The position numbers were made by a program, and so were the translations under genes. A stretch of DNA of 42,108 bases from Mycoemilia scoparia. Its lineage: Eukaryota > Kickxellomycota > Kickxellomycetes > Kickxellales > Kickxellaceae. Under the pieces are notes generated by a model. It had not been told where the DNA came from, did not search any database, and saw nothing but the letters and a program-made list of their open reading frames with translations. Of this stretch, positions 703-40,997 are shown one piece after another. Location of the stretch: assembly GCA_027575805.1 (NCBI GenBank), contig JANBPU010000144.1:1-42108 (forward strand). The letters run 5' to 3'. The stretch's first letter is position 1. Every line of letters starts with the position of its first letter.

Positions 703-2800
703 TTAGTTCTTTAGTGGCTCGATTCCTCTGCTTTCATAGTACATTTGCTTGAGTCTGTAACGGAATAGCTTTCCTGCAGTTGACTTTGGCAATTCCTTAA
801 TATATTCAGCCCCATGGCTCAGGTGATGCTCCTTCGTTGTTAATTGCTCGTTTACCCAGTTGACGATTTCTGTTGTATCATCTCCTGGGTTGGCAATATT
901 TGAAACAATATAGGCATATGGCACTTCGGTCTTATGTTCTGGATTGTATACCCCGACCACACAAGAGTAGGTAACCCCAGGATATGAGTTTAGTTTCGTC
1001 TCGATCTCAATAGGGAAAATAATCTTATCGTGATAGTAGATCATATCGCTCTTGCGTCCGTACAAGTGGATATTTCCATCATCGTCAATCATTCCAATGT
1101 CTCCTAGACAATAGAAGCCATCTTCATCAAAGGCCTTCTTTGTCGCTTCGGGATTGCCATAGTAGCTCTTCATTCTAGTCCTGGACTTGATCCACATCTC
1201 GCCAACTTGGTTGGCTCCAAGCTCTTTGCCTCTTGTATCCAAAATCTTGATATCCACACCAGACAAAGGTTGGCCCCGAGTCTCTGTGTAGCTAGTGACT
1301 CTCAAGCTGGCTATTCCAAAACACTCGCTTGAACCGTACAGGCTATGAATAGGGACACCGATTTCCTTTTCGACAAAGTTAGAGGCATCGTAGGTAAGTG
1401 GGGCTCCTGAAGAGTAAAAGTTCTTGACGGTACTTGTGTCGTACTTGGAATACACGTCCCTCCAACTATCACGGATGATTTCAATAAAGAATGGGGATAT
1501 GTTTATATCGCGCACTTGGTATTTTGAGATGTTTTCAAATATAGTCTCGAGTGGGATGGCGAATGAAGCTATGGTTGTTGTTCCTTGAGACAGATGGCGG
1601 ACACAATACAAGAGGATCCCATAGGCTACACCCATGGGCATACCTACTATAGTCGTGTTATCCTGGAGAGCTCTGAGCTCCGCGACTGTATCATGGCACA
1701 ACTCTGGGTAAGCACAGCTAACCAGAGCACGATGTGGAATTTCAATACCCTTTGGTGGCCCTGCAAATGTCAACAATAGGATCAGTTAGGACAAAATGAA
1801 TCTGGATTTTGTAGCTTAATTGGTCTACACTCAGATGAATAAATACCAAAACACTTGCCTGTAGTACCAGAAGAAAAACCGATAACTGCTGTGGTTTCGA
1901 ATTCCTCTTCATTTGAAATTACAAGGGGATCGAACTCTTCATCTGACATGAAAGTGAAAATCGATTGTGGAAGAGGCATTTCGTTTTCTTCACTATTTCC
2001 CTTTTCACCTCTATCGTTTCCATTGACTTCCTTGGGTGACGTCTGAGGCTGTATCACGTCTTCAAGTAGATAGATTTTATAAGGATTGTCTTCTAGAATA
2101 TCTTTGTCCACGAGCGAAATTGTTGCCTTGACCTTATCCAAAAGCTCTTTGGTTGTGATAATGACTTTGGGCTTGAGAATGGTTAGGCGAAGAGCAAGTT
2201 CAAACTCTGGATACTCTGGCATAGCCATGCTGTATATGCAACCTACATGCCAAAATAAAATAAAAAAAACATTAAATTAACCAGCCACTTGATTAAACTA
2301 GACCAGGTTGGAATGCTTGTTGAAAATTGGAATCGCTCCAGAGTCTCTCCTTTCCCTGCTTGCTTGTATACAGGAATAGAAACCAGAGGGGATCCATTGA
2401 CCAACAATCTAAGCAATAATTCACTTGATAGAATTTCTCTAGAGTTGTGAGAAGATTAATCCCACTCCACATTAAATTTTATTCATTGTTTTTACTTACC
2501 TGCCATGATCGTGGCGTGGAACAATGGTATCATATTAACATGGTTATCAAACAAGCTGAAAATGACATCGCCTCTTTTCAGCTTTAGGATATTTTGGAAC
2601 CCTGATGCTAGCTTATTAGACATGTCGTATATTTCCTTGTATGTCAGGGATTCGCTGGTTATACCACTGATGACGGCTTTCTTGCTTTCCCAATCGTTGT
2701 CATCGAGGTTGTTCTTCAAAGCATCAAATACAAAAGTCGAAACATCTTTGATAGGGAAGGGTTGAGTCACACAGTTTCTATAACTATAGTGAAATACCAT
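703..2800 (-). CDS. Acyl-CoA ligase-like AMP-binding enzyme, tandem copy 1
   Basis: An adenylate-forming enzyme (ANL superfamily, 4-coumarate/acyl-CoA ligase type), expected to activate a carboxylic acid as acyl-AMP and probably transfer it to CoA. The substrate cannot be read from sequence. The exons are 2800-2500, 2242-1859 and 1760-703, giving 580 residues. Core motifs are visible: SSGTTG-PPKG (A3, P-loop), YGSSECFG (A5), FYCLGDIG with LYGRKSD (A7/A8), and LPKSTAGKLFR with the C-terminal catalytic lysine (A10). There is no signal peptide, and the C-terminus PLKN is not an SKL-type peroxisomal signal. Intron 2 (1761-1858) has a GC donor and splits the A3 motif. The start MVFHYS matches the start MVFRVS of the neighbouring paralogue at 5552-7678. 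The 257-base first intron could hide a small exon. Confidence 0.88.
1761..1858 (-). other. GC-AG intron in adenylating enzyme copy 1
   Basis: The donor reads ACAG|GCAAGT and the acceptor TTTGCAG|GG. Splicing restores the invariant SSGTTGPPKG motif in frame. The nearest GT (in GCAAGTG) would not give this motif. Confidence 0.85.
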
Positions 2801-5551
2801 TGTCGAGATTTTATCTTATGTCGGATGGTGTGTGTATATATATATATAACAGGGACAAAAGATTAACGAGGGATGTTGCAGAAAAGAATGCTAGAGGTCC
2901 AGATTTATGTATCCTGAGGTGGAAAATTAAAAGAAAAGATAAAAGAAACAAGGTCTGGACTATTATTGCCACCGTGGAGATGTTTAAATAAGATCAGGGA
3001 GAAGAATTCCTAAAGGTTCAGGCGCAGCGAGGAGAGTCAATATCGGAAGCAAGGAGAAATCGTAATGGTCGCCATTCTGCTTTGTATTATGATTTATTGT
3101 TTGTAGAGAATTATGTTAAACTGGAGAGATGTGTACATGAGTGGATGAGGGCTGCTTCGAAATAGCCCGCTACTTGCAGTAGCAAATGCCAACCAAGCCA
3201 TTTTGGATAAGCATTTGGTCCACAGAAATTGCCATACTCCACCTCTGCCTTTCTCTCTCTCTCTCTCTCTCTCTCCAACACCATATTATGGTGGTGATTT
3301 TTCTGGCTTACTTCTTCGTATATTCTTAAATGTATAATGGTGTCAGGCGACAAAACTATTTTTGACATGGGCACTTTCTCCTACTGAGGCTTTCAGTAAC
3401 TCATGAGACACCTGATAAATAGTTGAGAGAGCGTTCTTGTGAGAACATGATGGAAGATTGCTTGGCTAACCATATGAGAAGCTAGTCTACATGAGAAACT
3501 TCTGCTTCGGATAGCTGCATCGGGTCTTAAATCGACTCTTAAAAATGTATCACATTGATCCATTGGCCTGGTGCCAAGGGTTTTTGACTGTTAGGTATAA
3601 TTGCAGACACAAGCTGGGCTTGTATGTATATGAAAGCAAGCCCCTACTTCATAACTTAACATCTGCACCTATTCTAGAAAATGGAGACCCTAGCTTTTTC
3701 ATATCTTGATCCAAAGTCATTTACCCTGATTCATAAAGACAATGATATGGATATTAGAATTTCTATATTAGGCTGAGGTCTTTCAATGATGAAGATGTAC
3801 AACAACATTGAAGAACCCTAGATATGCTCGGGATTAGATAGGCTCAAGCTTTATCAAGTCGAGTAATGGTTACCCTATTTCCAATACCATGATAAATGGA
3901 ATCGTAACAAAACGTTTATCTTCTCAGATGTATATTGTAATTATAAAATGCTAAAGTTAGCTTAACCTTTGCCAGCATATTCTTGTTTCTCAAGACACAA
4001 CATAGAAGGTTGAAGAGTAGGTAACACTTTTATTCTTACCCAAGATCATTTGGCATTAGATACATATAGCACACCATTTTTCTCTGTTAGCCAACAGAAA
4101 TCTAAATATCTGCTTTTGTAATTTGGAATGTTCTTAAGCTTGATCAGCTCCTACCAGCATCTATTTTTAGTTTTTCTTTTCATGGAAAACAAAACATCTC
4201 CCCTGAGTCTTTTTACTTCAGCATGCTAAGGACCTATGTCTTTGTGAAAGTGTGATGCCAAGCTCTGGGTGTCTCCGAAGGTTCATGGATAGTCATGAGG
4301 GGCTCGCAAAAGAATATGATTTCGAATTCACTTACAAATGTCTTTATTCAAGATTAATGCTGGTTATATTATAACCACTCAATCTTTGAATATATCGTGA
4401 GATGGCCTTTCTAACTTTCACTTGTCTACTGTATCAAGAATTTGTATCAGAATCATGTTCCTATTAGCCCCCATCATTGCCAACATTGTGAGTTTCAAGA
4501 TCCCACTACAGATGACCAGATCGATACACTTTGGGTTCTCTTTTTATTTTCTAAATTCAAAATGCTGTTAATATGCATTGTTTATGTATAGAGTATTCCA
4601 AATAAAGCAAACTGGCATGGAAAAGTCCATTTTATCCGGGCACAAGTATGCCTAACTATAACTTTAGGCCTTACAAATAATTTGCTGGTTATACATGCTG
4701 TAATATAGCTTAATAAGAATTAGAGTAACTTTTCCAACAATGCTTGTGACAAGGACAACGCCAGTAAACAAAATCTCTACTGTTTCTCAGCCAAAATTTT
4801 ATCCCATGGATTTGGCTACATTTATCTGAATCGTGAAAACAATAATAATGGTAGTAATGTCATTAGTATCATCTTCACAACAACAATCACCACCACCACC
4901 ACCACGACTATGAGAATTGGTCAATTAATCACGCTTTTATCCTCACATAGATAAGCACAAGGCAAATACTCTTGCAGCTACTACTTCAACCGCTTGTTTC
5001 ACACGCATCCACATGTATCAATTGAACATTGTGTAGGTAGAGGCGCTTCGCTGTATTGGGGCTGTCATGCAAGGTATCGCACTTTTCCATCAGCAAAAAT
5101 ATTCAGAAAGTTTGCATACTGAGTGGGATGGGGTTTCAAGGCGTCTGATCCACACATAACTGTTCTCACAATATCCACGTATTCCATTCTATAGCTTTGA
5201 TTTTCCGATTTACGAAGGGTTAAGTTATAGTTGAAATCAGAGTACTGTTCGACAGTAACCCCAGGGTATTTGCAACAACTATTGGGTTTAAAGAAAAGGT
5301 TAATTATAAGTTTACATATTAAATCAAACCAAAGAATTGCTGGATCGTTACTTCGCTTACTCCTTGTATACTACTTCATTTTTGAATTTCAATTTAATAA
5401 AATAAAACATACTAATAGCAAACTAAATACTAATAATTGTGGTGGGATTCCTTAGCACAAAAACTTTAAGCCTCAGACCGACAATACGTAAAAACCAAAT
5501 ATAATAGATTTAGGATATCTCATCAGTACTAATACTAGGCATCCCAGGTTG
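2801..5551. other. 2.7 kb stretch between the tandem ligase genes
   Basis: No convincing gene. It contains a (CT)n run at about 3254-3274, antisense to which an ERERER-coding frame is a repeat artefact. A (CAC)n run lies at about 4888-4906. One isolated minus-strand open stretch at 5072-5280 is listed separately. The length and lack of coding signal suggest decayed sequence or promoter-distal DNA. Confidence 0.5.
5072..5280 (-). other. Isolated exon-like open frame
   Basis: On the minus strand an AG acceptor (CCCAATAG) is followed by about 68 codons without a stop, ending in TGA. The frame reads as a protein-like segment including YPGVTVEQYSDF and ALKPHPTQYANF. I found no convincing partner exon upstream before the neighbouring ligase gene, and I do not recognise a family. 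It could be the last exon of a small or broken gene, or chance. Confidence 0.22.
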
Positions 5552-7678
5552 TCACTGGTTCTTGCGATTCCACTCATTTCGAAGCATGTATCTGTGTATC
5601 TTCCCAGCGTTGTTACTTGGGATTTCGTCAACTGCTTCGATGCCGCCATACAGTTTGTTCGGATGATCTAGCTGCTTGTTTGCCCACTCAGCAATCTCAT
5701 CCAGTACAATAGATTGTTTTGTTGAGCCTTTTGAGCCACTACTTAGGGCAACATAGGCTCTGGAAACCCATACATGCTCTTTATCAGGGATTCCAATAAC
5801 TGCACATCCCTTGACGAGCGGATGCTTAATCAATAGATCTTCGGCATCTACAATACATTTGTCATATACCAAGCATAGTGTCAGGATCCATTATACCAAA
5901 GTTATTTGAGAAATCTGCACACTGGGTGACACACTTGCCCTTTGGGAAAACCATGGTTTTGGAAGCAAAAAATATGACATCAGATTTGCGGGAGTGGAAA
6001 TAAATATGATTGTCATCTTTAATCGTAACAATATCGCCAACCCTATAATAACCTTCTTTGTCGAATGCCTTTGCTGTTGCTTCAGGGTTGTTAAGGTATC
6101 CTTTAAAAGCAGTGTGTGATCTTATGTAAAGCTCACCAGGCTCGCCTGAACCAAGTTCTATATCAATCACAGAAGCAGATATAAATATTATATAGTGGCG
6201 CGCATTGGTTGTATTGTATCCTTGATATCCGGTAAGCGCGGCCTACCTTTTCCATAGGTATCCACCACCTTGGCCTCTAATCCAGGGAGAATATGGCCCA
6301 CACTGTCCTGTGGAGAATCTTTAAGACCGAGGGTCACACCAAGACATTCGCTTGACCCGAACAAGGTATTAACTCTGATACCAAGGTTCTTGACAAAATG
6401 TTCATCGTAAGAATCCGGCATGGGCGCACCGGCGGAGTAGACACGCATAAGCGAGCTGGTATTGTGGCTGGAAACAACATCCCACTCATCAATCATCGCC
6501 TCAACTGTATTTGGAGAGGTGTAAAATGTATCTATCTGGTATTTTTCGATGGTTCTTGATATGAAAGGCACAGACATCCTGAACCCAGACACCAAGCAAT
6601 GTCCCTTGAGATAAGAATCAAATGAATCATTAATTTATGTTAGTTCCTTTTTAATTCATCAAGAAGAATAGGATGTGGCCTTGGTGGCAATTTGATGTTG
6701 CTATTGCTTGACTTACCATGCAGAGATGTGCGACAAGAGAGTATATACTATACACCACAATAGGCGGAAGGGTGGTAAGGTTGGTAACAACCCCAGTATT
6801 GGCAGACTTGTTTGTTTTGTGCAGCCCCTTGGTTATAAGTTCAGAATGGAATGCCAAATCGTGGACAGCGCAGGCCAAAATAACCCTATGTGGCACCAGG
6901 ATTCCCTTTGGTGGTCCAGTAGAGCCTGAGCTATATCCGATTATAGCTATAGTTTCATCCATTTCCTTCCATGTCTTTATAGACAAACGATCAAATGGAT
7001 CTGAGGACATTATGTCAAATAATGTCCGATAGGATTTTTCTGCACCGATTTGCTCGCCTTCATCAGGTTTATCGGCGGCATCTCTTACAAGGATGATTTT
7101 GATGTCAGATTTCTCTGATAAAGTGCTTCCGTTGTCTTTGTTTTCAATGCTGGAAATCTTTTCATTTGCTTGCTTGACGATGTCCTCCATTTGGTTCACA
7201 AAGTTGGGATCCACAAAGACGACTTTTGGCCGCGTTTCTACAAATCTACGAACTGTTTCGAATTGGGGAAAGTATGGAGATGACATCATTAAGGAGCACT
7301 GAGCCATGGCGACCCCATGGAATACGGGATTCATGTATATCTAAATAGACACAAGTAGCTTCTTAAGTATGAGAGCAATAATTTCACATATATTTTGGCA
7401 AAGTTGATATTTGCTGCCCTGCTTACCTCACGGAAAACATATGTAGCAACTACGTCTCCCCTTTTCAGCCCAAGTTTGTTTTGCAATCCAGAGGCAATGC
7501 CAAAACTCATTTTCTCTACTTGAGAGAAAGACAAGGTTTCACCAGTGTTTACGTCAATATTATGAGGCAAATCAGGGTCAACGCCATACTGAGTCTTCCT
7601 TGCCTTATCAAAGGTGAACGAAGAGATATCTGTTACTGGTATCTCAATATCTGTGGATGTAGATACTCTGAAAACCAT
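5552..7678 (-). CDS. Acyl-CoA ligase-like AMP-binding enzyme, tandem copy 2
   Basis: A paralogue of the enzyme at 703-2800 in the same orientation, with the same expected chemistry (acyl-adenylate formation, probably acyl-CoA ligation). The exons are 7678-7427, 7340-6717, 6604-6247, 6157-5939 and 5847-5552, giving 582 residues. Motifs are YSSGSTGPPKG (A3, uninterrupted here), LFGSSECLG (A5), YYRVGDIV with FHSRKSD (A7/A8), and IPSNNAGKIHRYML (A10). In A10 the GK lysine is kept but the usual preceding PK is PS. The last intron (5848-5938) has a GC donor, and splicing joins MVFPK to DAEDLLIKHP, the family sequence. Intron positions differ from copy 1, so introns were gained or lost after duplication. 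Substrate unknown. Confidence 0.88.
5848..5938 (-). other. GC-AG intron in adenylating enzyme copy 2
   Basis: The donor reads AAAGG|GCAAGT and the acceptor TTGTAG|AT. It gives the in-frame join MVFPKDAEDLL, as expected for the ANL C-terminal subdomain. Confidence 0.85.
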
Positions 7679-9362
7679 TGTATATATATGTGGATATAGG
7701 TATATGTATGGCTAAAATTCAAATAATAAACAATAGAAAGTAGTGTGTTATAATATAAAAGGGTTATTATATTAAAAGCTATGAATTCCTAGACTCTTCG
7801 GTCAAAAGAAAGGCCGTGATATTTATATTCCACTAAAGGGCAGCAGCAGCAGCAGCAGCATTTGGCTGTTATTTCTAGCAAGTAGCTCACACCAGACTAT
7901 GCAAATGATATCAGTAGTTTATAATAGCATAGCTTTGATGAATGGAGCCTTCAGAAGCTCAGACACAATTTGGTTGATTTCTGGATGGTTCCAAAAAATC
8001 TGATAGATTGATTCCATGGAAACAAGCATTCAGGATCAGGTGAGCCATTTACCACATATGCTTGCTTTGTTAGATTTTGGTTTATAAAAATACCTTCAGC
8101 TAGAAACATTATACTCACCAAAGTATCATGGACAGACTTGGTCAGATGTTTTCTCCATATAATTAAAAATAGACTTGATGAGATGAAACCTACTAGAAAC
8201 ATAGCAGTATTTGATGTCTGCTCTAAAAGGAGTGGCGGTGATTAATTAAAAAATGCATTGTATAAGTAGCTGGTCTCTGTCTCCACCTGTATCAGTTTAG
8301 AGCTTTCTTGATGGCAAGTGCACTGGTCCTTATAATATCACTCTTTTAAAAAGCAGGGCATAGTGAAAGAAACGATATTAGGGAACAACCAAAAATAACT
8401 ATTTCTAGATCATCACGGTATGCCACCATACTTAAGGGTTGGTTATTGTAGCCCTTGGGTTGCCATTTTCCTTCATGATCTACTGCAATTTTCAAACCTC
8501 AATAGATGGCAAAGTAATCTCCTCTAAAAGGGTACTAAGATGCTCCCTGAATACCAACCAATCATCATCACTGAAACTCCAGCTAAAATTTATAGTTTAT
8601 GGACTGATTTACAGGGAATGTGCGAGGGTATCTGTCTGTTCCCTTTTGATAGAGAACTTGCTATATGGAATATCTGGGGGGGGGCTAAGGCTATCTATTT
8701 TACCCCTTTGCCACAACATATTACGGAAGTGTACTTTTTATATTCAAATCAGATGTGAGATCAGCAACTGCAAGGTTATTATTAGGGATAATGATAGCGG
8801 ATTTGTTAAATTATTCTAAATAAGGATACAAAGGATAAGGGCAAGTGTAAACTCATCAATAGAGAAAGCTTTATATTCTTCTTGGATTACTCGTGACAAA
8901 GTAAAGAATGTCTAGAGATGCAAGTGATTATAGGAGGGCTTAATATGAGTGTGCTCTTTTTCTAGTAATTTTCCACACAGGTAGACAAAAATAGGAAATT
9001 GGAAATGCTTTGCTGGAATTATCATCCGTTATAGTTAAATTGAGGACTGAAATTCAACACCACAGAAAGAGAGAAATAAAGCACTATTTCACATTTATAC
9101 CCCGCCTTTCCTTGCCATGGATCACAATACTGTAATGTCAGATTAAGAAGTATATGGATATCTACACTGAAAGGGATTTAGGATCTAATGAGATCTAAAC
9201 AGGCTTGAGTTAAAAGGACTTCTAGTACATTTACTCAAGAACTTGGTAACCCTGATCTTTAGCAATGTTGGAATTAAATAATTATATTTATATATTTACA
9301 CAAAGTATAAACATATTTTTCAAAGAAAAACCACACCAAGTTCATAAAAAGGGACTTGTTGC
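7679..9362. other. Gene-free stretch upstream of ligase copy 2
   Basis: AT-rich sequence containing a (CAG)n run of about seven units at 7841-7860. Open frames at 7951-8202 (minus) and 8439-8819 (plus) show no family features or splice context. I consider the stretch non-coding. Confidence 0.5.
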
Positions 9363-12165: not shown

Positions 12166-15100
12166 TCAATATTTGGTAGACTTTTTAAACTGCTCCTGGC
12201 CATCCAAAGTAGACTCGCTGACACTACGTTTCCTTGTTTGGGCATTTCCTATTTTATAGCAGACTTGCTTGCATCTATAAAAAATTATACAGCAAATGTC
12301 AACAGAGAGAATATTGTAAAGCTAATTAGAGCCAAAAGTGTGAATATTGGTGATGCAGACATAAGGTTTCATAGCCCATACCTTTCCTTATCAGTACATC
12401 TTTGTCCACACTGTTTAGTGGGATTGCCAATGTGATCCGGGCTTGGCTGGATATCCTCGACTGCAGTATCTGATAATTGTCAATGACCATGATAGTTAGG
12501 ACTCGAATGGCTTTTCAACGCCTATTACGTAAAAGTGCCTTACCACTCTACAAAGTTTTTAATGCCAATAGCGCATCAGTTATTATCAAGTATAGTCAAA
12601 TAAAATATAGAAAATGGAAATTTTGTTTGCATTTGGGATATCTACCTCTTGTTTGATGTACGTGGAAAGCCATTCATTATCAGTCGAAAAGTATCTGCTC
12701 TTTTGCTGGATAGGAGACATGACAACTGCTTCTGTCCCAACTAAGTTTACAAAACCCAGATCAAAAAATTGTAACTCAAACCTGTACAAAGATTTTTATA
12801 ATTTTGAATCTTCACCTAACCCACCTTGGTCATCGCATCCTATATGGGCATTTATATACTCTACATCCTGATCAAAGTTTCCTTCCAGAACAAATTCCTG
12901 GGGTTTGACCAGTCTCTTCAAGCTACATATAAATTTATAAATTAGTAGCTATTCATGAACATTAAAGCATGCTAAAAACCCTTTGTGTTTATATATGCCT
13001 TACCTTATACGACGAAATGCCAAGAGTTTATTGGTATTTGTCCATACCAACACTGTGCACCAAAGGACCTTGCTGTGCTTGCCATGGAATGCCGGGCTGT
13101 TATTGAGGCATACAGATACGAGGATCTCACTCATCCCACTTGACCTGCTTTCTCTCTATTATAAAACATATTATATATATATATATATATATATAACAAT
13201 TTAGACACCAATGTAAAGAAAGGTCAACTTTTTCTGCTACCGATTTACCTGATGAACACTAATGTAGAACTTTGGAAAACATTCTGTTGCTTTTATAACC
13301 TGATTCCCGAATGGTGGCTTTCGATTCAAGATCTTGATTTACAGGCAGTTGTTTTAGAAGTCATCCATACACTGGTGGAATGGTCTTCATAAAGTAGTAT
13401 ATGATGTTCTATAAATCCCAGCTTACATGTTCAATTTTCCTGGGATCCATTTGCGAAAGCTGGCCAATATTCCTTACTCCGTTGTCATAAAATGTTTTGG
13501 AGTACTTTGGTCCTATTTTATCTACCTGACACAGGACTTTGAATGAGGTATCCCAGGTCTCTGCTGAAATGAACCTATGCAGCATGATGGCTTGACAGAT
13601 CCCTTGCACATCTCCTTTATTCGAGTAGTGTTCAATTATGCACTTGGTAACCCTTAGGCCATGCTGGAATATTTGTCCCATGCTCCTGTTTATCCCAGGT
13701 GCTGCAGGACTATCCTTAATGTCTATCCCACCCATATTGCACTAATAAACAGAACTCTTCATCAGTGAACATTTGCTCTATACTATACTTTCTGCCAATT
13801 GGGCATCTAGACAGCTTATACACAATAATACCTGGAATAGTATATACATCTTATCTGCGACATCCTTTACTTTTCCTTTCAGCGGGTACTTGATTGCAAT
13901 GTGTTTGTTTAGTTCATTGAGCAGTCCCTTTTCTCCCATTGCAACTCTCCATTCAGAAAACTCCTCTGCCTTGCACATCGCTTCCAGCTTTCAAAGAAAA
14001 TAAGTATTAATAAGATCAATTAGAAAAGATTTTGGTAATATATGCATATCCCAACAAAAATATATTTGCTATCTTACTATTTGTTGAAAAGTAGGGTTCT
14101 CTGGCAGGCCTTTTACTATTTTCATGGTTGTGAATCTCAAATAGTATCTTGCCATGCTTTTCCCTAGCTCTATATGTTATATTCAAAAAGAAAGTGTACT
14201 AGTAAGTAGCTTGGAACAAAAGCATATAATTGACAAGAATATTGTTACATACCAAGCGGGATAAGTGATTTGTAGGTCTTGTTTTGCTGTATGAGCCCAG
14301 CGCCCTCAAGATCATCGATAACCCTGTCTGTAAATCCTGGATAGACAAACCTTGAGTTCAAATTCAAATAACAAGCTAAGAGATCGTTGTATATCTACTA
14401 TACGACTACTTACTATCTAGACGCTCTTTTGGATCTATATGGACAACATCCGCATCTTCTCCTGGAAGTTTGTAATACAGCGGATTTTTGTGGATACGGA
14501 TAGCAAGGAAGGTCGACTGAAGCCTATAAAAATATATATAATTCATCCAGAAAAATAAAAATGATAAAAGTTGTTTCCTTCATGTTGCTTAAAGACGTTA
14601 ATAAATAGGTCGTATGCTCAAATGATAGCTACCATCTTTTCGCATCTTCCTTGTTGAATAGACATCCTAAACATATTTCAGCATTGAGGTGCTCCACTAG
14701 GTTTTCATGGAGCCTATAACCAAATTATAAAGGTCGAATTAGCTTTTTGGAACATCAATAAACCACAAATGCTTGGGATAAAAAACAAATGCATTATACT
14801 TGCGTGCTTTCAAGTACTTCGCATCCCGACATCATCGTCTCATATTTGTTTCTGTTGTTCTCAGATGTCATTATTACTGCAACCCCATCTTTATCGAACT
14901 GGGGTCTACCTGCTCTCCCCATCATCTGCAAGATCTCCATCTGAGAGTATTCGCAAAACTTTCCACCATCATATCCTGCCAAGAAATGAAAAGCTTTAGA
15001 AACAGTGTAGTGCGTATGAATCCTATATAGAAATTGATTTTATATTTACCCATTGTCCCCTTTATTACGACAAGATGTGCTGGGAGATTAACCTATTTGG

Positions 15101-17909
15101 GTCCATAACAACGTTTGGTGTGGGCTTGAAAATTTATCCCGAATTTTATCAATCAATATACATAATATATAAAGTTTATGTAGATCTGCTTACTCCGACA
15201 GCCAAAGTAGATGTGGTACCTAGGATGTATAATATATTAAGATGTCAGCTTAAAAATAAATATAGCTTATAAGTCCGGACTCCAATGAAGAGAACATACA
15301 TAGAATGCTAATGCAGTTTTCTAAAAAGAGACTTTCAATCTTCTTTCGATCTCCAAAGTCAAGTCCAGCATGGTGGAATCCGACGCCGTAACGCGAGAAT
15401 TCTATTCAAGGTGAGAGTTAGATTAAAGGTATTGGATTATAGCATGAAAGCACGCAATGAGAGAAAAATGCATACCATCCAACTTTTTATCAACAAATGT
15501 CCTCTGACTAAATAGTTTAAAATTAGACGTTTGATCATCAATGCAATAGCGCCAATATATGACTCTGAATAGCCTAAATTTGTGCAATTGAAATAACAGC
15601 ATACCATTTTTGGTGTGGTGCTGTTGACTCCTTTTTTATCTCTTCGACCAATGTATGACAAGACTGCTGTGTAGATTTTCTGGTGCTACAAAACTGGAAT
15701 CACTCATAGCATTACGAGTGGAAAAACAGCCAAGAGGTGCCAAACAAAGTGATGGATGTTTACCACAAGTGTTGGTTTTCCGTTGCTGTGCTTTCTTATT
15801 ATCTCCATCAGCCTATACAAATTTATATTAAAAAATCCATAGAAAATCTTAGCATTGCTGAGAACATGTACCTTTTTGAGACCGAATATTTATTTTTAGC
15901 TATACTTGCTTGTAATCCAAGTTTCTTTCAAACATAAATGGCTTCTCACTCATTGGAAAACCATAAACAACCTTTGAAAGAGGAACTGGCCTGTAGCTTT
16001 CATCAAATACACAAACTTCGGTTTCCGTGTTGGTCTTGTCTTTACTTATCCACTGAGAGATGTCTTCAACATTCTTGACTGTGGCAGAGACTGCAATGAA
16101 TCTTATGTCCTGGTTTAGCGACTTCAAACGACTGACAATGGCTTCAAGTGTTGCTCCACGCTTCTCTTTAATGATATGCACTTCGTCAATCTAACAAGGT
16201 TTTTAAAAAGCATATATTAGGGCATCTTTAATGGATAAGGTCGTATACTGTGAATAAACAATGCAATGTTTACCAGCATGAGCTTGATGCTAGAAATGAA
16301 ACTTTTGTGCTTTTTCCACTTCCTGGTATAGGCATCCCACTTTTCCGGAGTGCTTATTCTAAAAAACAGAAGTGTATAACCCAAGAATCTCATTATAAAC
16401 TTTAGAAATGCCAAAATTACTCAAAGATCTGCTATTAGTTATACAATTTCTATAACCAGATACGATACTTACATCAATGTTTTGCTCTCCATTGCCTTCA
16501 TTGCTCCATAGTCAGTGTCACTAGTAAACATTTGGCCTAAATAAAAGGTTACTTTTACTGCCTTTCATAATGCATCTTTATATATTAAATGGAAAAGCAT
16601 AGCATGTATGGCTATAGTTACATTGAAAGCCAATATCTCCAAACTTTTTGTCCCAATCCTGAGCTCTTTCTGCGCATAATGCCTATAACGAGTTTAGTTA
16701 GCATATATGTATATCAACATCATCTTGATATCAAAGATGAGAGAAAGTTCGATATAAACCTAGGCAGTGCTACCTTTATTGGTGCCAAGTAGACGACTTT
16801 AATAGAACATGAATCTGGTCTGTTCAACATTGCTGCAATAGCCAGCTCCATCACACCCGTCTTTCCTGCTCCCGTTGGTGCTGTTATGAACAAAAGTAAA
16901 TATTATAATGGAGGTTCCAAGTTAATCTGGATACAAATACTATGTATAGATATGTACCACTTATCACTAAGCTCTTATTTCCTTGGAATACCTATGTGGA
17001 AGTAACTGAAGATAATATTATCAAGAACAGAATATGAACACACAGTCTATACATATACTGGACTGACCTTGGAAAAACATTCAGACTGCACCCGATTGAA
17101 GTATTGGAATGGGAAAATACTTTCAAATGGTGAGGCTTGTTATTGTCCAAGACAAATTTTATCGTTAATATAATGATGAAGCAAATGTGCACTATATTGT
17201 TTTTGCATATAAAAAGTCTAATAACTTTACTCACGGATTATAGAGCATGGTATTGCACCCGAAAATGGCGGGTTGTTGCATCTAACGAGGCTCTTTGTCG
17301 TAACTTGTGCACTATGTAATAATAACAACAAGATTAGGCCATATGCTATCTAATATAGAATCGATATGACATGATAAAGAATAATACTTCTGCTGCAACT
17401 TACTGAGCAACCTGGTTTGTAGTAGAGCGACTGTTGAATGTTGGGACTGCAGCTGTAGCCTGAGTATTTAAAATCTCTGGCATGTGGTGATTTTTTACCC
17501 ATGTAGTCTGACCAAGAGGTAAAGTGAGCCTTTGTCTTGAGCAACTACCACTGCTGCTATCAGCAGGAGCGGAGTTCATTTGAAACTGATTTGAATAGGT
17601 CGAATCCTTGGCGTTTATTGGAGTTCCCATGCAACTATTACTCATATAGGGATATCTATAACTATCGCTGGAATCTTTTCCAAATTTGCTAAAAAGTGAT
17701 GAACGACTTGGATCAATACTTTGTTGGATAAAATTTTGTGCTAAAGGTAGAGGCTGATAGGACGGCTGAATTGCTTGCTGGTCATTAAATTGAGCAGGAA
17801 GGACTGACGACCTAAGATCCATGGTATCACGAGGTGCTTCAAACTGTGCAAAGAAATCGTCCAGCTCTTGAAGCTCTTCCAGATTGACCTGATTTCTTTT
17901 CCCATCCAT
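12166..17909 (-). CDS. MER3: Meiotic DNA helicase MER3/HFM1
   Basis: The Ski2-like superfamily 2 helicase that promotes meiotic crossovers as a ZMM factor. At least 27 introns are needed. The exons read in order: a disordered N-terminus (17909-17402), SIFPFQYFNRVQSE, Walker A SAPTGAGKT (about 16870), the DEVH box IDEVHII (about 16190), VSATVKN, FCSTRKS, HHAGLDFGDR, TTSTLAVGVNLPAH, and QMMGRAGRPQFD (about 14910). A winged helix and Sec63 domain (ELGKSMARYYLRF, LFQCNMGGIDI) and helix-hairpin-helix follow. The C-terminal zinc knuckle typical of HFM1 (CGQRCTDKE then RCKQVCYKIG) ends at 12166. Introns 15813-15909 and 14714-14803 have GC donors. The joins around 12450-12790 are unresolved: the open segment FELQFFDLGF (12586-12789) looks coding, but its phase does not match the preceding donor. 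It converges with the basic-protein gene at 11987. Confidence 0.92.
13171..13195. repeat. (TA)n microsatellite inside a MER3 intron
   Basis: About twelve TA units between MER3 exons in the Sec63 C-terminal region. No effect on reading frame is evident. Confidence 0.8.
14714..14803 (-). other. GC-AG intron in MER3 (helicase/winged-helix boundary)
   Basis: The donor is AGCAC|GCAAGT and the acceptor GTTATAG|G. The join gives CEVLESTLHENLVEHL, matching the conserved HFM1 sequence in this region. Read-through gives STQV and then a stop. Confidence 0.85.
15813..15909 (-). other. GC-AG intron in MER3 (between the RecA-like domains)
   Basis: The donor is TACAA|GCAAGT and the acceptor TGTATAG|G. The join gives NLDYKLMEIIRKHSNGKPTL, as expected before FCSTRKS. 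Using the overlapping GT donor shifts the next exon into a non-homologous frame. Confidence 0.85.
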
Positions 17910-18055: not shown

Positions 18056-18930
18056 TCAATTATCTTTAGGCTTGCCATCAGTATCTGCCCTGTCACTGCC
18101 AGAGCCGATACTATCTGAAATATCCTTGAATGATGGGCGACTGTTGAGCAAGGCCATGATACCCGATGCTATAAATGGAAATCCGTATTAAAAAGGTCAA
18201 TTTGGTTTTAAACTGCTGGGTGAATGCTAAGCTAATACTTACTCCATGCAATGCTAGTTAGTATAGGTCTGCTCGCCCCAGTTAGAGAGACCATGCCATT
18301 AGCCTTTTCTAGCACTTGTCTTCTTTTTCTTATAGACCAAACTACAGTTAATGCTAGCAATGCTGTTGCTGTATACTTTATAAGTGGGTTTACTGGCTCA
18401 TAGTCGATCTTGGATGTGCCAGGATAAATTGCAACTGGAACTTGTTTAGACTCTGTTATTCCCGAGAATGCATGATTTAGACACCGAATCTACACCACAT
18501 ATTGACAAAGTCATGATAAATACTATATTTGGTGGCTGATGTTGTTCCTATATAGCCTAAAGTGACACTATACTTACTACTGGGCTTGCATAAAGCGGCT
18601 TAACATCTTGGCTTGCCTCCGTAGCTTGAAAACCATAAAAAATATATTTCTTGGATATCATATGATTACTATTATAGATAGTTTAGTTATCCCAATGGAT
18701 TTTCCTAAATACCTTTTGGGCTAGGCTTTGAATCGCTCTCACCCATCTCTTCAAGAAGATAGTTGTAATAGTCCACTATGCCGTTATGATGTGGGATTGA
18801 TATATCTGGTTGAATGCTTTATTTTATTACTGTAATAACATAATTTGCTAATAAAACGCAGTTTTAGCTATTGTGGGATATCATTTTATATGCCTGTCAA
18901 ACTTTACCTTGGATCAAAAAAGTGATACAT
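18056..18930 (-). CDS. Small single-pass membrane protein of unknown function
   Basis: I do not recognise the family. Five exons join in one frame: 18930-18908, 18816-18713, 18624-18578, 18489-18243 and 18168-18056, for 177 residues. The N-terminus is MYHFFDPSIQPDISIPHH followed by an acidic stretch. A clear hydrophobic segment (LIKYTATALLALTVVWSI) is followed by the positive cluster RKRRQ, and the tail is serine- and aspartate-rich. The positive cluster directly after the hydrophobic segment resembles a membrane or tail-anchor topology signal. The target membrane cannot be told. It lies between MER3 (146 bases away) and RMI1 (104 bases away) on the same strand. The first exon carries only 23 coding bases, so the start is the weakest part of the model. 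Confidence 0.65.
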
Positions 18931-19034: not shown

Positions 19035-21139
19035 TTATAAAAATATTAGCTCTAAAAGTAGTGGTGCATCATGCGCTTTGGAATCGCTATCTAGCAATTC
19101 CATCTTGAATTTAGCCTTTTTATTTAATATTTTTTCGACCATCAACTTTTGGATAGGTGCTGCGTCTACAGATGACTTGATCCTTGTCATTAGATCTTTT
19201 GGGGACATTTCGAGCACAGAAGATAATGGCTAAAATTAATGTAAAAAAGCTATTGTTATTTCATTATATTCTGCTATAGGCCTCTTTTTTATTTCAGAAA
19301 AGAATAGCACTTGCCTCTTTTGGTATATTGACACACAGTATATCCTGGTTGGCATCTTGCATAACAGCTGTAACCCTAAAGTTCGATGCAGTACACAACA
19401 GCTTTCCAAAGTTCACAATAGAAGCCTTTAGATCGCATCATTAGTTAGTTGGCTGGTTTTGGTAATTATCGAATACGCCATCAATGCTACTCACCTCAAC
19501 AAAAACCTGCTTTTGTTGCTGCTTTTTTATGATATCTTGAACTTGACTGATCGATACCGTAGGTATGCTTACTGAACTAAAGGAAATGTCTTCTTCAAAT
19601 TCTGAAATATCCAAGGAAATGCTAGCGATCTGGTCGTCGTCTATGTCGTCAAACTTTAAGTCGTCGTCGTCGTCATCATCATCCAGTGTAATATCAATTA
19701 CCCTGCCGCTCCCTGTTTGACCTTTAGTCTCTGATATTTTGTTTGGAATATTGTTATTTACATGCAGTGCTTCTTGATTTGAAAAAACACTTGTAACTTT
19801 AGAACTATCTTTCATTGGAGTCGAATCCTTTTTCTATATTCACAAATAGACGATCTCTTTGTTTCACCTATCCTATAATACAAGAAAATGGCTGTAGATA
19901 TTGAGATGACAAACACTTACCACTTTTCTTGCCATTGAAAATATATCATCGTCATCATCACTGTCTATAAAATCAAACATGTCATCATCTGATTCTGTAA
20001 TGTATACTGGGCCAGAATTCTTGAGGCTTTTAGGTGGTTGCTTAGGCGGGCTCGGTTGCTCCATGCTAGGCTTCGCAATATCTGTTTTTGAGTAAGCGAA
20101 AAGGGTTAAAATGCCGATTAATTGTGATATAATATATTTTATATAATGGGACGATAAATATGTCTATCGTAACATTATGACTCACTTTTAGTTGACATGG
20201 AAGAACCATTATCGAGAGTAGTTTGCACTGTTCTACTTTCGTTGCCACTCCCTCCTCTGTCTCCAATCCTATAAATAAATGTATAGTCAAAATAGCATCA
20301 AATTTCTGTTCTTGGCAGAGGGATAAATTACAGAGTCTCGTAACGATTCAATTCTTACTTTAACAAACCCTTTAGCCTATGTCTTAGTGTGATGTTATGA
20401 TATTTTGGTGGGTGTCCTCCTAGAACTAATATATCTGAAGGCCCAACTTGGTAGAACCCCATATTCGCTGCAATCATAACAGGATTTCGAACAACCACCT
20501 ATATTTGTTGCACAAAAATAAAATACGATCCAGAATCTGATGTTGTTTGAGCATCAACAAGTAAAGAAAAACCATAAATGCTTCTACCTTTGTTCCTATT
20601 GGCATTTCAACAGATAGACTCTCGATCCTGACACTTTCGATAACAGAGACTTGATGTTTACCATCAGTCAAAACCAACTTTATCATGTTTCTAGGGAGCT
20701 TGGGCTCTTTTTGTAACTCCTCATCATTTACAATAGATTCTAATCCAGCTAGAGAAAGTTTGTGCTGTGATTCTTTTCGCTTAAAGTAGTCTTCTCTCTC
20801 CTTCAATCCTTGCCAGAGTTGGTAGTTGCTAACGCCAATATCGGTAACATTCTGTACTTGCAAAAGCGTGGGCCTGTTAGCCAATTCCAGGACTTTACTT
20901 GATCCTTTTATTGTTTTTGGAATTAAAATGGGCTGACATGCTTCTGATATATCAAAGTCCAGAAGTTGATCAAGAATCAGCCCAGCAAGAGCAACCTCGC
21001 TTAGATTGGCAATATCTTTATTGTGTTTTATTTTTATTTCCTCAGTCAAGTGCTTTACGCATTCATCGAGCCAGTGGTCGGAAAACTTTATATTATATTT
21101 GGAATGCAAAAGATTCTTTGCTAGTGTTATCACTGACAT
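19035..21139 (-). CDS. RMI1: RecQ-mediated genome instability protein 1 (RMI1)
   Basis: The OB-fold subunit of the RecQ helicase-Top3-Rmi1 complex that dissolves double Holliday junctions. Seven exons sum exactly in frame to 526 residues: 21139-20588, 20498-20359, 20268-20186, 20081-19921, 19833-19495, 19425-19315 and 19229-19035. The N-terminal region has the three-helix segment (FSDHWLDECVKHL). The OB fold follows: LPRNMIKLVLTDGKHQVSVIE, EMPIGTK joined to VVVRNPVMIAANMGFYQVGP, then ILVLGG. The middle is acidic, with an uninterrupted run of eight aspartates. The C-terminal part (ASIVNFGKLLCTASNFRV to PLSSVLEMSP) resembles the second OB domain of longer RMI1 proteins. The intron at 19230-19314 has a GC donor. 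It is the third gene in a same-strand group with MER3. Confidence 0.9.
19230..19314 (-). other. GC-AG intron in RMI1
   Basis: The donor is AAAGAG|GCAAGT and the acceptor AATTTTAG|CC. It joins CVNIPKE to PLSSVLEMSPKDLMTRIK, leaving the final exon open to its natural stop. The alternative GT donor four bases on leads to a different, shorter frame. Confidence 0.75.
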
Positions 21140-27212: not shown

Positions 27213-27766
27213 TTAGCCGAGCTTGAAATCGAGGTCTTTTTCAACAAATATAGACTTTTGTATGTGGGATTTGACTCTCTCGTCCTTGACCATGCGGTTG
27301 TCAATTCTAATGTCCTCGCCCTCGACACCAAGAGAGGCCTTGGGTGTCTTGGCTTCAATCACATAATGGTTGTCACAGTGTGGACAGTATTCGTCCTCCT
27401 CTTCGTAATCTCTATAGAAAACATAATGTCGTATTGTGAAGGGGTTTGTTAGTAAGTGAACACACATCAGTGATTTGTATGCGATATATTGCTTTATAGG
27501 CCTTGCGCAGCTACTTGCTTCATATCCTTGCGGAAACACTTTTTACATTTTTTGCAAGCAAATATCATTTCGTCTGTTTTCTTTAATGGGTGGTTGGTAT
27601 TTTCGCTGTGACATTCGGGACAGTCAAACCACTTTTTGCAGCATGCTGCACGAATGGATACCTATATGTTGTCAAGGCAATATAAATTACTTTCGATACT
27701 TGCTACAAAGCATTGGGATTGGACTCAAGAATGGCATACCTGTGCGTTGAGGATATGTTTACACAT
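27213..27766 (-). CDS. CHY-type zinc-finger protein
   Basis: A zinc-binding protein of the CHY/Hot13-like family. Exons 27766-27740, 27661-27519 and 27411-27213 sum to 122 residues. The zinc ligands run in order: CKHILNAQ, ACCKKWFDCPECH, NHPLKK, FACKKCKKCF, then EYCPHCDNHYV. The C-terminal tail (KSHIQKSIFVEKDLDFKLG) is not zinc-binding. The intron 27412-27518 has a GC donor. The start is uncertain. The same frame is open upstream (YPILGLYSSNM) to an acceptor TTTCAG near 27802. A small upstream exon ending CAGTAAGT near 28217 could join in the correct phase. Role unknown; yeast Hot13 acts in the mitochondrial intermembrane space, but that cannot be inferred here. Confidence 0.8.
27412..27518 (-). 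other. GC-AG intron in the CHY zinc-finger gene
   Basis: The donor is ATGAA|GCAAGT and the acceptor TTCTATAG|A. The join gives CFRKDMKDYEEEDEYCPHC in frame. The GT inside GCAAGT gives the wrong phase. Confidence 0.88.
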
Positions 27767-35575: not shown

Positions 35576-36010
35576 ATTTTTGCCAAACCACTATACTAAT
35601 ACTACAATTGTCCATCCAAGTTCTGTTTTATATATACACACACACATATTTATTACTTTTGTAATCAACCATTTAGAATGCTATCTATTTGTCATCATGA
35701 TGTTGTTAAGTTGAGAATCCACCAGAGTATTCTCTAAAAAAGTGTACCAGAATACTATATCCAATGCCAGTCTAAAATGTATAGTCAGCCTATGGGTCAA
35801 ATTTGCTGAAGTCTCGTAAGCGTGTCACTTAGTTCAGCCAGACTTGCTGGAGAAACCTATCATCTTGAGTGGTTTATCATATCTAATAATGTTGAGCATC
35901 TGTTTTCAAAGTTTCAATCTATTTTTTCAAGTATACCAAAAATATTCTAATGCTTGTGCATTCTTTACAAAAACCAAAATGTGTTTCTAATAATTTTTAG
36001 ACTTGGTTTT
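35576..36010. other. Convergent 3' region
   Basis: About 430 AT-rich bases between two convergent stops. No gene or repeat beyond a short (CA)n run near 35636-35645. Confidence 0.5.
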
Positions 36011-37736: not shown

Positions 37737-39328
37737 TTACTTCTTGCTCTTCTTCTTCTTGGATGACTTTGGCGTCTTTCCAGATGGTGTGTTTTCTGCA
37801 GTCTTGGTCTTTTTGGACTTCTTTGGAGTTTCAACCTCCATGGCATCATCGTCAGCCTTTTCCTGAGCAGGAGCAGCTTTCTTTGAAGCTTCCTCAGTTG
37901 AACCAGCTATGTCGCCAAGGACCTTTTGCATGACATCGACATTCTTGGATGGTGGGGCACCAGTCTCGTAGAACTCTAGACGGTCCTCTACCTGCTTGCG
38001 AAGAGCTTCACCAAACTTGTTTGTTGGTTCATCAGAATAACAGTCAAGGCGAGAGGCAATAGTTGCCTTGTTGGCAAGGAATCTGGAAATGCGACCCTTG
38101 TTCTTTGTGCCTGCCTTGCCAATGAACGAAGAGTGGTAGATAAGACCATACTTGGGGGTGTTGCCCTTGGTCTTCAAGGCACGGAACAAAGCCTTTTCGG
38201 CACCAAGGATCTGAACAGTGGATGCTGGGTATTTGGACAAGTTGGTAAGAGAACCAGCGTGGGCAATGAGGCGGGCGCCAACAATGTCGCCGATAAGGGC
38301 AGCCAGGTTGGGGGCAACAAGACCCATCTTAGATTGAAGGTAGTCAAAGAGCTTCTTGCGGTAGTCAGATAGGGAAACAACACGGTTAGCAAAGTTCTCA
38401 ATGTTGATCATGTCGATATCGGAAATGTCGGTACCCATGGAGGTCTTGGCGGCCTCAATAATTTGGCGGGCCTTTGCTTCGTCATTTACAATCTCTTCAA
38501 TGGCACCAAGCTTCTCTTCGGTCAAGGTACCCTTGTTTCTGATGATGGTAGTGAGCTTGGCAAACTCAACATTGTTGGGAACAATCTTGACAAGTTCGGG
38601 GAAGTGCCACGAGTACCATTCGCGGGCACGCATAGCAAATGTGTTGAGATCTTTATCAAGCTGATCGAGCAAAGCAATGGCCTGAATAATCATGTTGTCT
38701 GAACGGTTGACGTTGAACTTGACCTTGGCTCTTGAGTAGGCGTGACCGAGACCAAGCTGGGCCTTATCAAGATCGCCGCTCTTGAGCTGGGCAAGAATCT
38801 TGTCACAGTGAAGTCTGATACCACGGATCAGCTCGAGTACCAAATCGTCAGTAACACAGGGGACGCCAGTAGCGGCCTTGATAGATCCAGCCAAGTTGCG
38901 CTCGCCGACACCAAGATTTGCGGACTTCTTGCTCTTTACAAGGTTCAACTCGATGAATGACTTGAGGGTTTCGCTGCAAATACCTTCAGAAACATCGTTG
39001 ATGTTTTCAAGAGCCTCAGCGGCATTCTTGAAGGGAACAAATGATTCAAGCTTGATAAACTTGCTCAATTTTCCCAAGTCGGTAACAGACTTTTGTACTT
39101 CATCGAGCTTGGCACCAATCGATTCGGCTTGCAAAACCTGGAATAGAGCGTAGCCAGAGGCTGTCTCATAAAGGATATTCTGAACGCTCTATAGTCATCA
39201 AAGTGTTGTTTAGTTATCCAGTTCAAATATTCATGTTTTTTTCGTAGCATGGTGGTTACTGTTGTGAAGTTGAGGCCGAGGTGGATTCATTTGACGGAAT
39301 TCAAGTAAAATGTGTGTCTTCTTACCAT
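37737..39328 (-). CDS. NOP56: Nucleolar protein NOP56 (box C/D snoRNP core)
   Basis: A core protein of box C/D snoRNPs that guide 2'-O-methylation and pre-rRNA processing in the nucleolus. The main exon 39188-37737 begins at an ATAG acceptor with [17 protein letters not shown]. Upstream, an ATG at 39328-39326 is followed at once by GTAAGA. The coding part of exon 1 would therefore be just the start codon, giving 484 residues. The NOP domain shows [20 protein letters not shown], the diagnostic [11 protein letters not shown], the [20 protein letters not shown] core that binds the kink-turn RNP, and the usual lysine-rich KKSKK tail. The pattern [12 protein letters not shown] and the overall length point to NOP56 rather than NOP58. 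Codon use is GC-rich. Confidence 0.93.
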
Positions 39329-39872
39329 ATCAAATATGTATTTTGATCTCCTTAGTTATAAAACTGCTTTTCTTGAAATCCTCTTGCTTTTGAAAAATTT
39401 TCGAGAAAGAAGTTGGACACACGAAAACCAATAAGGTTTAAAAACAAAAGGAGGATTTTGTTTTAAAAGGAGAGGAAGGGTTAGAATTTGGTATGGAGAA
39501 ATTAAAAGAAGAAGAGGGAGAAAAGGGAATAGCAGGTGTTTCTTTGCAGAACTTGGGTTCTCTCGCTCTGTGCCAAATGAAACTTTTTACTTAGAATGCC
39601 TTTATTAATGCGTAGAAGTTTAGCTCCAGCCCAAGTTTTTAGCTGTCCACAACAATATCGATTTTGACTGAAAAAAATTTACAAATTTATTTTTGCTTAA
39701 TCATTAAGTATCAAGCCTCTAATCTGATCTAAATGTTTCAATCACCATACATGCCCATAAATCAAGTTAATTGGCTGATGAGTTAAAGCAAGTATAGGTG
39801 TGGAAATAATTAATTCATATTAAAGTAAGAATAAACTGTGCTAATCTGTGATAAAGTTCGATTTCAAGCTTA
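39329..39872. other. Divergent region, NOP56 and the TPR gene
   Basis: About 540 bases, including purine-rich sequence on the plus strand (about 39440-39535) just upstream of NOP56. It presumably holds both promoters. No gene seen. Confidence 0.5.
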
Positions 39873-40997
39873 ATGGATAGTGGAAGTGACATAAACAATA
39901 AGTTACTTGAGAGTATCAGAAGGTTTGAAGGTATTCAGGGAAGCACATCATCAAGGGTAAATATATGGATCCTAGAAATTTCGAATTATTGTATAAACAC
40001 AACTTGAGATAAAAATACTTTGACAATGTCTCAAATGGTATATTAACCTGTACTATTTGTATCAGTCTCGCTATAGCAAAGTTAAATCAAGAGGATCCCC
40101 ATTCCACCTCAATATCACCAGCCCTGGATTTAGCTCGAGATCCTCCCCTGTCAAATTTGACTACACTAGCATATTAGAGCAGGCATCATCGGACAAGATT
40201 GATAATGGTGGTAATGCTAATGCAAAACCTAGTGGAGATACATATGGAAGAATGGAAGACAAAGTGAGTCAAGCGATTGACTATAAAAATATGGTAAGAG
40301 GGGCACTTTATCAGCGCTGTTATTTAACATAAGCATACACATAATAAATCAAGATCGTATAAATGTTGAAATGTAAAAAAACAGGGCAACGAGGAATTCA
40401 GGAATGGAAACTTTCAAATGGCAATCAAACATTACTCTAAATCAATTGAACTTGACCCAGCCTCAGCAGTATATTGGGGTAATAGAGCCATGGCCAATCT
40501 TAAAATAAAAAGGCAAGCCACTTTGTAAAACATAGATTAATCTATATTTCAGCACATTATGTATTCTATACATGCAAACAACCGTTTTTGATTCAAAAGG
40601 TACGAAAATGTAGAAAGTGACTGTAGCGAATGTTTGAGACGAAATCCCAGCAATGTCAAGGCCTTATGGCGGAGAGGAATTGCTCGCATCTCAACTAACA
40701 ATTACCTCTTGGCTAAACAGGGTAAGAAATCAATTCTAGAGAACATATCACTAAAATACAGGTTTCTTGACCCTTTATCTTGATGGAACGGTGATAGATT
40801 TAAAGAGAGCACTTTCTCTCGATCCCAAAAATAAAACCGTGTCCAATGAGCTATCCAAGCTTGAAAAGTTGTTACCGCAAACCCAGTTAAAAGACGACCA
40901 GATCTCGGTTCCAGTACAGATAGTAAAATCTGAAAAAGATCTTCCAGATGATATCTATCTGGCTCTAGAGCCTTATTTGAAACGACATACATTATAG
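39873..40997 (+). CDS. TPR co-chaperone-like protein (RPAP3/SPAG1-type repeats)
   Basis: A small protein with a tetratricopeptide-repeat cluster of the Hsp90/Hsp70-binding sort. Exons 39873-39956, 40066-40293, 40385-40512, 40600-40721 and 40798-40997 sum exactly to 253 residues. A serine-rich N-terminal part leads to TPRs: GNEEFRNGNFQMAIKHYSKS, IELDPASAVYWGNRAMANLK, IKRYENVESDCSECLRRNPS, and the third repeat LWRRGIARISTNNYLLAKQD. It ends LKRALSLDPKNKTVSNELSK. The N, R and K positions resemble the carboxylate-clamp type that binds EEVD tails. The intron 40513-40599 has a GC donor. The precise orthologue (RPAP3, SPAG1, TTC-type) cannot be fixed. Confidence 0.82.
40513..40599 (+). other. GC-AG intron in the TPR gene
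   Basis: The donor is AAAAG|GCAAGC and the acceptor TCAAAAG|G. The join NLKIKRYENVESDC has exact TPR spacing. A GT donor 12 bases downstream would also keep frame but would insert QATL between the helices, so the GC call is good but not certain. Confidence 0.7.

What the first reader, a model, noticed from the sequence alone, without database searches (positions are those of the whole stretch)
1761..40599. Unusually many GC-AG introns, all with a GCAAG donor
Seven introns in six genes need a GC donor to keep the conserved protein sequence: 1761-1858, 5848-5938, 14714-14803, 15813-15909, 19230-19314, 27412-27518 and 40513-40599. Against about 66 introns placed in this window that is roughly one in nine. 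GC-AG introns are usually about one percent of introns in eukaryotes. All seven donors read GCAAGT or GCAAGC, the form with best U1 pairing after the C mismatch. This suggests a lineage whose spliceosome tolerates or favours GC donors, and automatic gene models will miss these joints.
Basis: partly seen in the sequence, partly recalled or inferred. Interest (0 to 1): 0.75.

Follow-up and report, generated by a model that had tools for sequence, protein, structure and literature searches.

The report
Unusually frequent GC-AG introns in Mycoemilia
In the fungus Mycoemilia scoparia, roughly one intron in ten among the conserved genes checked seems to start with GC instead of the usual GT although the one U1 RNA found looks ordinary, and the public gene models checked misread those sites.

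Summary
The window is a contig of a 21.2 Mb fungal genome, Mycoemilia scoparia. All seven claimed introns are at the stated coordinates, with donors GCAAGT (6) or GCAAGC (1). A spliced protein alignment that left the +2 base free kept 47 well-flanked introns: 40 GT, 7 GC, 0 GA, 0 GG. Outside the window it kept 28 GT and 3 GC (mago nashi, FIGNL1, CCT8): 9.7%, 95% interval 2-26%; chance of 3 or more of 31 at a 1.3% rate is 0.0075. The excess is not confined to the window, but the rate is rough. Four of the seven window introns pass my rule, two have partial support, one rests on reading frame. All ten GC donors read GCAAG, against 21 of 40 GT donors. The one U1 snRNA found has the canonical end. 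Three public models covering four GC introns get none right. Most likely these are ordinary U2-type GC-AG introns at several times the usual fungal frequency, tolerated through strong flanking U1 pairing. High GC-AG shares were known in GC-rich algae; this genome is AT-rich. RNA evidence is missing.

The parts
1761..1858 (-). GC-AG intron, donor GCAAGT, in AMP-binding ligase A between SSGTT and GPPKG
   Evidence: AMP-binding 118.4 bits with the GC junction against 110.7 with the public GT junction; public model P0121 uses GTTTTG six bases downstream
5848..5938 (-). GC-AG intron, donor GCAAGT, in AMP-binding ligase B before the C-terminal domain
   Evidence: right flank aligns, left flank weak; AMP-binding_C match starts just after the junction; public model P0122 reads through the GC donor
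14714..14803 (-). GC-AG intron, donor GCAAGT, in HFM1/MER3 helicase (VLES|TLHENL)
   Evidence: public model P0001 uses GTATAA four bases downstream and loses the next exon; wHTH domain 48.1 bits with my model, no match listed with the public one
15813..15909 (-). GC-AG intron, donor GCAAGT, in HFM1/MER3 helicase (NLDY|KLMEII)
   Evidence: public model P0001 uses GTATAG four bases downstream and shifts the frame
19230..19314 (-). GC-AG intron, donor GCAAGT, in a gene taken to be RMI1-like
   Evidence: reading frame only and ab initio parse; no Pfam match across the junction
27412..27518 (-). GC-AG intron, donor GCAAGT, in CHY zinc-finger gene
   Evidence: junction inside a zf-CHY match of 30.9 bits, cut-off 31.3; ab initio parse
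40513..40599 (+). GC-AG intron, donor GCAAGC, in RPAP3-like TPR gene (LKIK|RYENVE)
   Evidence: against fungal RPAP3 relatives; score 260.1 with GC, 234.6 with GT only

Best explanation
These are U2-type GC-AG introns, spliced by an ordinary spliceosome with an ordinary U1 snRNA. In Mycoemilia scoparia they make up several percent of introns (my judgement: 4-15%) instead of the usual 1% or so. A C at +2 leaves an A-C wobble against U1, which is affordable only when the rest of the donor pairs well, so every GC donor found is GCAAGT or GCAAGC while GT donors vary freely. Mutation from GT to GC at already strong donors is then weakly selected against and such sites accumulate. Shown here: GC at the junctions of conserved genes inside and outside the window, the strong remaining donor consensus, the canonical end of the U1 found. 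Inferred: that they are spliced, the wobble, and the relaxed selection.
For:: donors and restored frames; 7 GC and 40 GT of 47 kept introns, none GA or GG; outside the window 3 GC of 31, P = 0.0075 at a 1.3% rate; with full references, allowing GC raises the alignment score in 7 of 7 alignments (by 16-79), more than GA or GG do in each; GA and GG add nothing in three; curated Pfam models score the GC junction higher than the GT alternative for FIGNL1 (135.9 against 122.4 bits), CCT8 (520.7 against 488.3) and AMP-binding (118.4 against 110.7); no GT/AG pair keeps the frame within 24 nt in mago nashi or CCT8; one U1, canonical. PMC4383343 (passages) reports that a +2C donor oligonucleotide binds U1 snRNP better than +2A, presumably by a wobble with a protonated A.
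Against: No transcript data. The outside sample is 3 of 31 introns, lower bound 2%. The ab initio parse outside the window gives GCAAG, GAAAG and GGAAG introns as 16, 12, 6 at penalty 0, 8, 7, 2 at -1.5 and 6, 1, 1 at -3, with 129-134 GT introns; scaled to the number of sites the net GC share is about 3-5% (my arithmetic), and at the weaker penalties the margin over GA is small. It recovered one of the three outside GC introns. The mago nashi case hangs on the last four residues (IKPI). The tie of GC to AAG weakens if the two hand-removed HFM1 rows are left in (7 of 8 against 21 of 41, p 0.062), and the aligner's donor score favours AAG in general. Only 41 of 386 U1 candidates were scored, and five requests for a search for further U1 copies did not complete.
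Confidence: 0.7

Rival explanations
1. The window is a chance cluster: GC-AG introns are genuine but only about 1-2% genome-wide, and a first reader scanning many windows picked an extreme one.
For: The window share (4 of 16 kept introns) is higher than outside (3 of 31); the interval outside reaches 2%; the ab initio net share outside is only about 3-5% (my scaling).
Against: 3 or more of 31 at 1.3% has probability 0.0075, at 2% 0.024; the outside loci were chosen by contig number or by chaperonin family, not by donors, although the genes tested in them were those I could match to a relative and MAGO had been flagged ab initio.
Confidence: 0.2
2. The true donors are GT sites a few bases away (for example GCAA|GT), as the public gene models assume.
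For: Public models P0001 and P0121 use GT four or six bases downstream; eight of the ten sites have some GT/AG pair within 24 nt that keeps the frame, with net length changes of 0 at 14714 and 19230 (residues replaced), -1 residue at 5848, 2 residues at 1761, 15813 and 40513, 3 at 27412 and 6 at FIGNL1 at best.
Against: The public choices in HFM1 shift the frame or drop an exon; mago nashi and CCT8 have no such GT/AG pair; with GT only the alignment scores fall in every gene with a GC intron and Pfam scores fall.
Confidence: 0.04
3. A variant U1 snRNA or another changed 5' splice-site factor pairs with or favours GC.
For: All ten GC donors share GCAAG; the genome was only partly scored for U1.
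Against: The U1 found has the canonical end; only strong donors carry GC, which is what a plain mismatch would give; GT donors stay the large majority.
Confidence: 0.05
4. Sequencing error or pseudogenes.
For: Single draft assembly; no reads seen.
Against: Ten separate sites on four contigs, all with the difference at +2 of a strong donor, seven of them in genes whose flanks align well.
Confidence: 0.01

Closest known systems
GC-AG introns of Aureococcus anophagefferens (39.6%), Micromonas pusilla (22.2%) and Chlorella (7.7%), PMC3033335 (passages read)
   Same: GC-AG share far above 1%; the passages say the U1 sequence is unlikely to explain it and call the origin an enigma.
   Different: Those algae have the three most GC-rich genomes of that survey (69.5% and 65.9% for the first two); Mycoemilia is a fungus and the window is 39% GC.
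Ordinary minority GC-AG introns of mammals and fungi (PMC2490688 passages; PMC7072748 passages and section 3.1)
   Same: U2-type look; the rest of the donor sits closer to the consensus when +2 is C.
   Different: There the share is under 1% of mammalian donors, and fungi average 98.7% GT-AG; here several percent. Meyerozyma guilliermondii (about 6.67% major non-canonical) is a reported fungal outlier.
GA-AG-rich species Eurytemora affinis and Oikopleura dioica (PMC7072748, section 3.1)
   Same: A species-specific rise of one non-canonical donor.
   Different: The donor there is GA; no kept intron here has GA or GG.

Membership tests
U2-type GC-AG introns | GC donor with AG acceptor at a junction fixed by a conserved protein | tested here: met
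   7 of 47 kept introns
U2-type GC-AG introns | Remaining donor positions stronger than in GT introns | tested here: met
   AAG at +3 to +5 in 7 of 7 kept GC (10 of 10 argued) against 21 of 40 GT, p 0.019 (0.0043); mean matches to the consensus 5.7 against 4.2 of 7. With the two hand-removed rows left in: 7 of 8 against 21 of 41, p 0.062
U2-type GC-AG introns | Spliced in vivo by the major spliceosome | not testable with these tools
   no RNA data
U12-type introns | Long conserved donor of the RTATCCTT kind (recalled) | tested here: not met
   none of the seven window donors reads so
Lineages with abundant GC-AG introns (Aureococcus type) | GC-AG share clearly above 5% | tested here: inconclusive
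   9.7% outside the window, interval 2-26%; ab initio net share about 3-5%
Lineages with abundant GC-AG introns (Aureococcus type) | High genomic G+C | tested here: not met
   window 39.1%; 19 of 20 sampled stretches 32.9-43.8%, the other being mostly N
Lineages with abundant GC-AG introns (Aureococcus type) | Canonical U1 5' end | tested here: met
   one gene found, 41 of 386 candidates scored

The most novel reading that the evidence does not exclude
Kickxellomycotina, or at least Mycoemilia, has a relaxed check of the +2 base after U1 binding (for example in U1-C, Prp8, Prp28 or U6), so that GC donors above 10% are normal in an AT-rich genome, and gene annotations of the whole group are systematically broken at these sites.
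Probability: 0.25. Interest if true: 0.7.

Novelty: new variant of a known kind. Interest (0 to 1): 0.5.

Why it matters
Earlier cases of abundant GC-AG introns were tied to GC-rich genomes, with the splicing side unexplained (PMC3033335, passages). An AT-rich fungus with a canonical U1 would separate base composition from splicing fidelity and make the cause testable by comparing U1-C, Prp8 and U6 with relatives that have few GC donors. In practice, public proteins of this species are wrong at such junctions: 4 of 4 checked sites.

Tried and rejected
Ab initio gene parsing first suggested few GC introns outside the window. It is noisy: with all +2 bases equal it also called many GA and GG donors (147 GT, 79 GA, 58 GC, 36 GG), and it missed the CCT8 and FIGNL1 junctions, so I used it only as a secondary, low estimate.

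Branch-point motif: CTAAY in only 36 of 121 predicted GT introns, too weak to help. Introner-like origin: against the other held loci the kept introns gave only short matches of 19-51 nt, many of them simple repeats, and, for one CCT4 intron, full matches to its two duplicate loci (matches within a locus were not looked at). The 18S search did not complete; the organism came instead.

Rows dropped before the count: of 92 distinct introns called, 43 failed the rule (flank scores of at least 15 on both sides, no gap near the junction, not retainable in frame, 50-400 nt): 32 GT, 7 GC, 3 GG, 1 GA. The failed GC rows are 5848 and six others, none of them GCAAG. I then removed by hand two kept HFM1 rows (16181-16485 with GCAAAA and 16496-16773 with GTAGCA) because the partial Spiromyces reference lacks exons there and the other two references give different introns that agree with each other; left in, the count is 8 GC of 49. 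The genes tested were those for which I had or could name a relative; MAGO had been flagged by the ab initio run first. Of the 20 sampled stretches L016 was left out (mostly N), and of the 19 chaperonin loci I used 12, the rest overlapping them. One search added NRK1, CLTA, SNRPA1 and septin, which gave GT introns and two artefacts (one GA, one GG) and are not in the 47; by flank scores they would add about two GT outside and one GT in the window.

Full report
What it is. The window is contig C51 of a 21,160,063-base genome in 466 contigs. A search with the helicase gene of the window returned a public protein named MER3 of Mycoemilia scoparia on a contig of exactly 42,108 bases, and the ligase search returned two more proteins of that species from a contig of that length. 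The species is in Kickxellales, Kickxellomycotina. The window has 39.1% G+C.

The observation. Joined exons restore recognisable proteins: SSGTT|GPPKG in an AMP-binding ligase, VLES|TLHENLVEHLNAEI and NLDY|KLMEIIRKHSNGKPTLV in HFM1/MER3, LKIK|RYENVE in an RPAP3-like TPR protein, and a CHY zinc-finger protein. I graded them. Four pass a two-sided homology rule (1761, 14714, 15813, 40513). 5848 is supported on the right side only. 27412 falls in a zf-CHY match just below the cut-off. 19230 has frame and ab initio support only.

Independent sample. Twenty stretches of 10 kb were taken from contigs chosen by number (19 used), and chaperonin loci by family (12 of 19 used); with the window and six small loci this made 299,574 bases. 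I wrote a spliced protein-to-DNA aligner in which the second intron base is free and only the other donor and acceptor positions are scored. Under one rule, stated in Tried and rejected, and after removing two HFM1 artefacts by hand, 47 introns remain: 40 GT, 7 GC, none GA or GG. In the window 12 GT and 4 GC; outside 28 GT and 3 GC. The three outside are mago nashi L013:618-736 (SLHFK|IKPI), FIGNL1 L011:1412-1497 (GEGEKM|VRALFAVARC) and CCT8 L038:2985-3109 (QQQEDE|AGDGTNYV). At the 1.3% GC-AG share found in a survey of 61 species (PMC3033335, passages) three or more of 31 has probability 0.0075. The interval for the outside share is 2-26%.

Controls. Allowing only GT lowers the score in every gene with a GC intron: by 79-89 in the three HFM1 alignments, 69 in CCT8, 42 in FIGNL1, 41 and 27-29 in the two ligases, 25.5 in RPAP3, 16 in mago nashi. 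Some of these drops include a second, artefactual non-GT row (CCT8, both ligases, one HFM1 alignment); with only GC added the CCT8 gain is 52. In 13 of the other 16 alignments the score does not change; in three it falls slightly or by an artefact (ZMAT2 25, DNAJC2 6, CHCHD2 4). Allowing GA or GG adds nothing in HFM1, RPAP3 and mago nashi, and less than GC in both ligases, CCT8 and FIGNL1. Curated Pfam models agree: AAA 135.9 against 122.4 bits for FIGNL1, Cpn60_TCP1 520.7 against 488.3 for CCT8, AMP-binding 118.4 against 110.7; for HFM1 the wHTH domain appears only with my model (48.1 bits) and Helicase_C rises from 34.7 to 45.3, where part of the difference comes from a neighbouring intron. 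One weakness: FIGNL1's junction lies in a part of the reference that I recalled; with that part blanked the aligner does not call it and GA scores slightly above GC, so its support without recall is the Pfam comparison. Another: eight of the ten sites have some frame-keeping GT/AG pair nearby, at the price of lost, added or replaced residues; mago nashi and CCT8 have none within 24 nt.

A result that leans the other way: an ab initio parser restricted to GNAAG donors found outside the window 16 GC, 12 GA and 6 GG introns at penalty 0, 8, 7 and 2 at -1.5, and 6, 1 and 1 at -3, beside 129-134 GT introns in the runs with GC. Scaled to the number of sites that is a net of about 3-5%. It recovered one of the three outside GC introns above, so I read it as a low estimate. 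My overall judgement is 4-15%.

Gene models. Three public Mycoemilia proteins were laid back on the window. P0121 uses GTTTTG six bases downstream of the GC at 1761 and puts two extra residues into the ATP-binding motif. P0001 uses GTATAG and GTATAA four bases downstream at 15813 and 14714, shifting the frame in one case and losing an exon in the other. P0122 reads through the GC donor of 5848. None of the four GC introns is annotated.

Mechanism. The Rfam U1 model finds one gene over the cut-off (C127:2073-2237, 96.5 bits; 41 of 386 candidates scored), and its 5' end reads ATACTTACCTG. So the C at +2 faces the usual A. All ten GC donors are GCAAG; GT donors have AAG at +3 to +5 in 21 of 40 (p 0.0043 for ten, 0.019 for the seven kept; p 0.062 if the two hand-removed rows stay). 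A closer fit of the rest of the site is the known habit of GC donors (PMC2490688, passages). A structural study found that a +2C oligonucleotide binds U1 snRNP better than +2A, presumably through a wobble with a protonated A, and that U1-C tunes binding of mismatched sites (PMC4383343, passages). I therefore take these as ordinary U2-type GC-AG introns that this species tolerates unusually well.

Known or new. GC-AG introns are well known. High shares were reported for Aureococcus, Micromonas pusilla and Chlorella, the three most GC-rich genomes of that survey, with U1 judged an unlikely cause in Micromonas and the origin called an enigma. Fungi average 98.7% GT-AG, with outliers. What is new is a probable high share in an AT-rich early-diverging fungus. 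In the listings of ten literature searches I saw no report of it.

Noticed in passing
window 111-466: An element of about 107 bases, present in inverted arms (111-137/190-216 and 136-195/368-427), has dozens of copies on other contigs, mostly above 90% identity: a short inverted-repeat transposon-like family.
   Followed up: partly
window 500-8400: The two neighbouring AMP-binding ligases are 33% identical paralogues whose introns, the GC ones included, appear to lie at different positions, so each GC intron seems private to one copy.
   Followed up: partly
window 18490-18616: A further GCAAGC-AG intron is called by the ab initio parser only; no homology was available.
   Followed up: no
L035, L036 and L042: Three nearly identical CCT4 loci lie on contigs C400, C24 and C460; one intron is 93-97% identical between them: recent duplicates or uncollapsed haplotypes.
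   Followed up: no
L013:2322-2440 and L014:2162-2280: Single dispersed 5S rRNA genes.
   Followed up: no
L028:1465-5063: A long frame that reads like a Ty3-type retroelement polyprotein (judged by eye from the translation).
   Followed up: no
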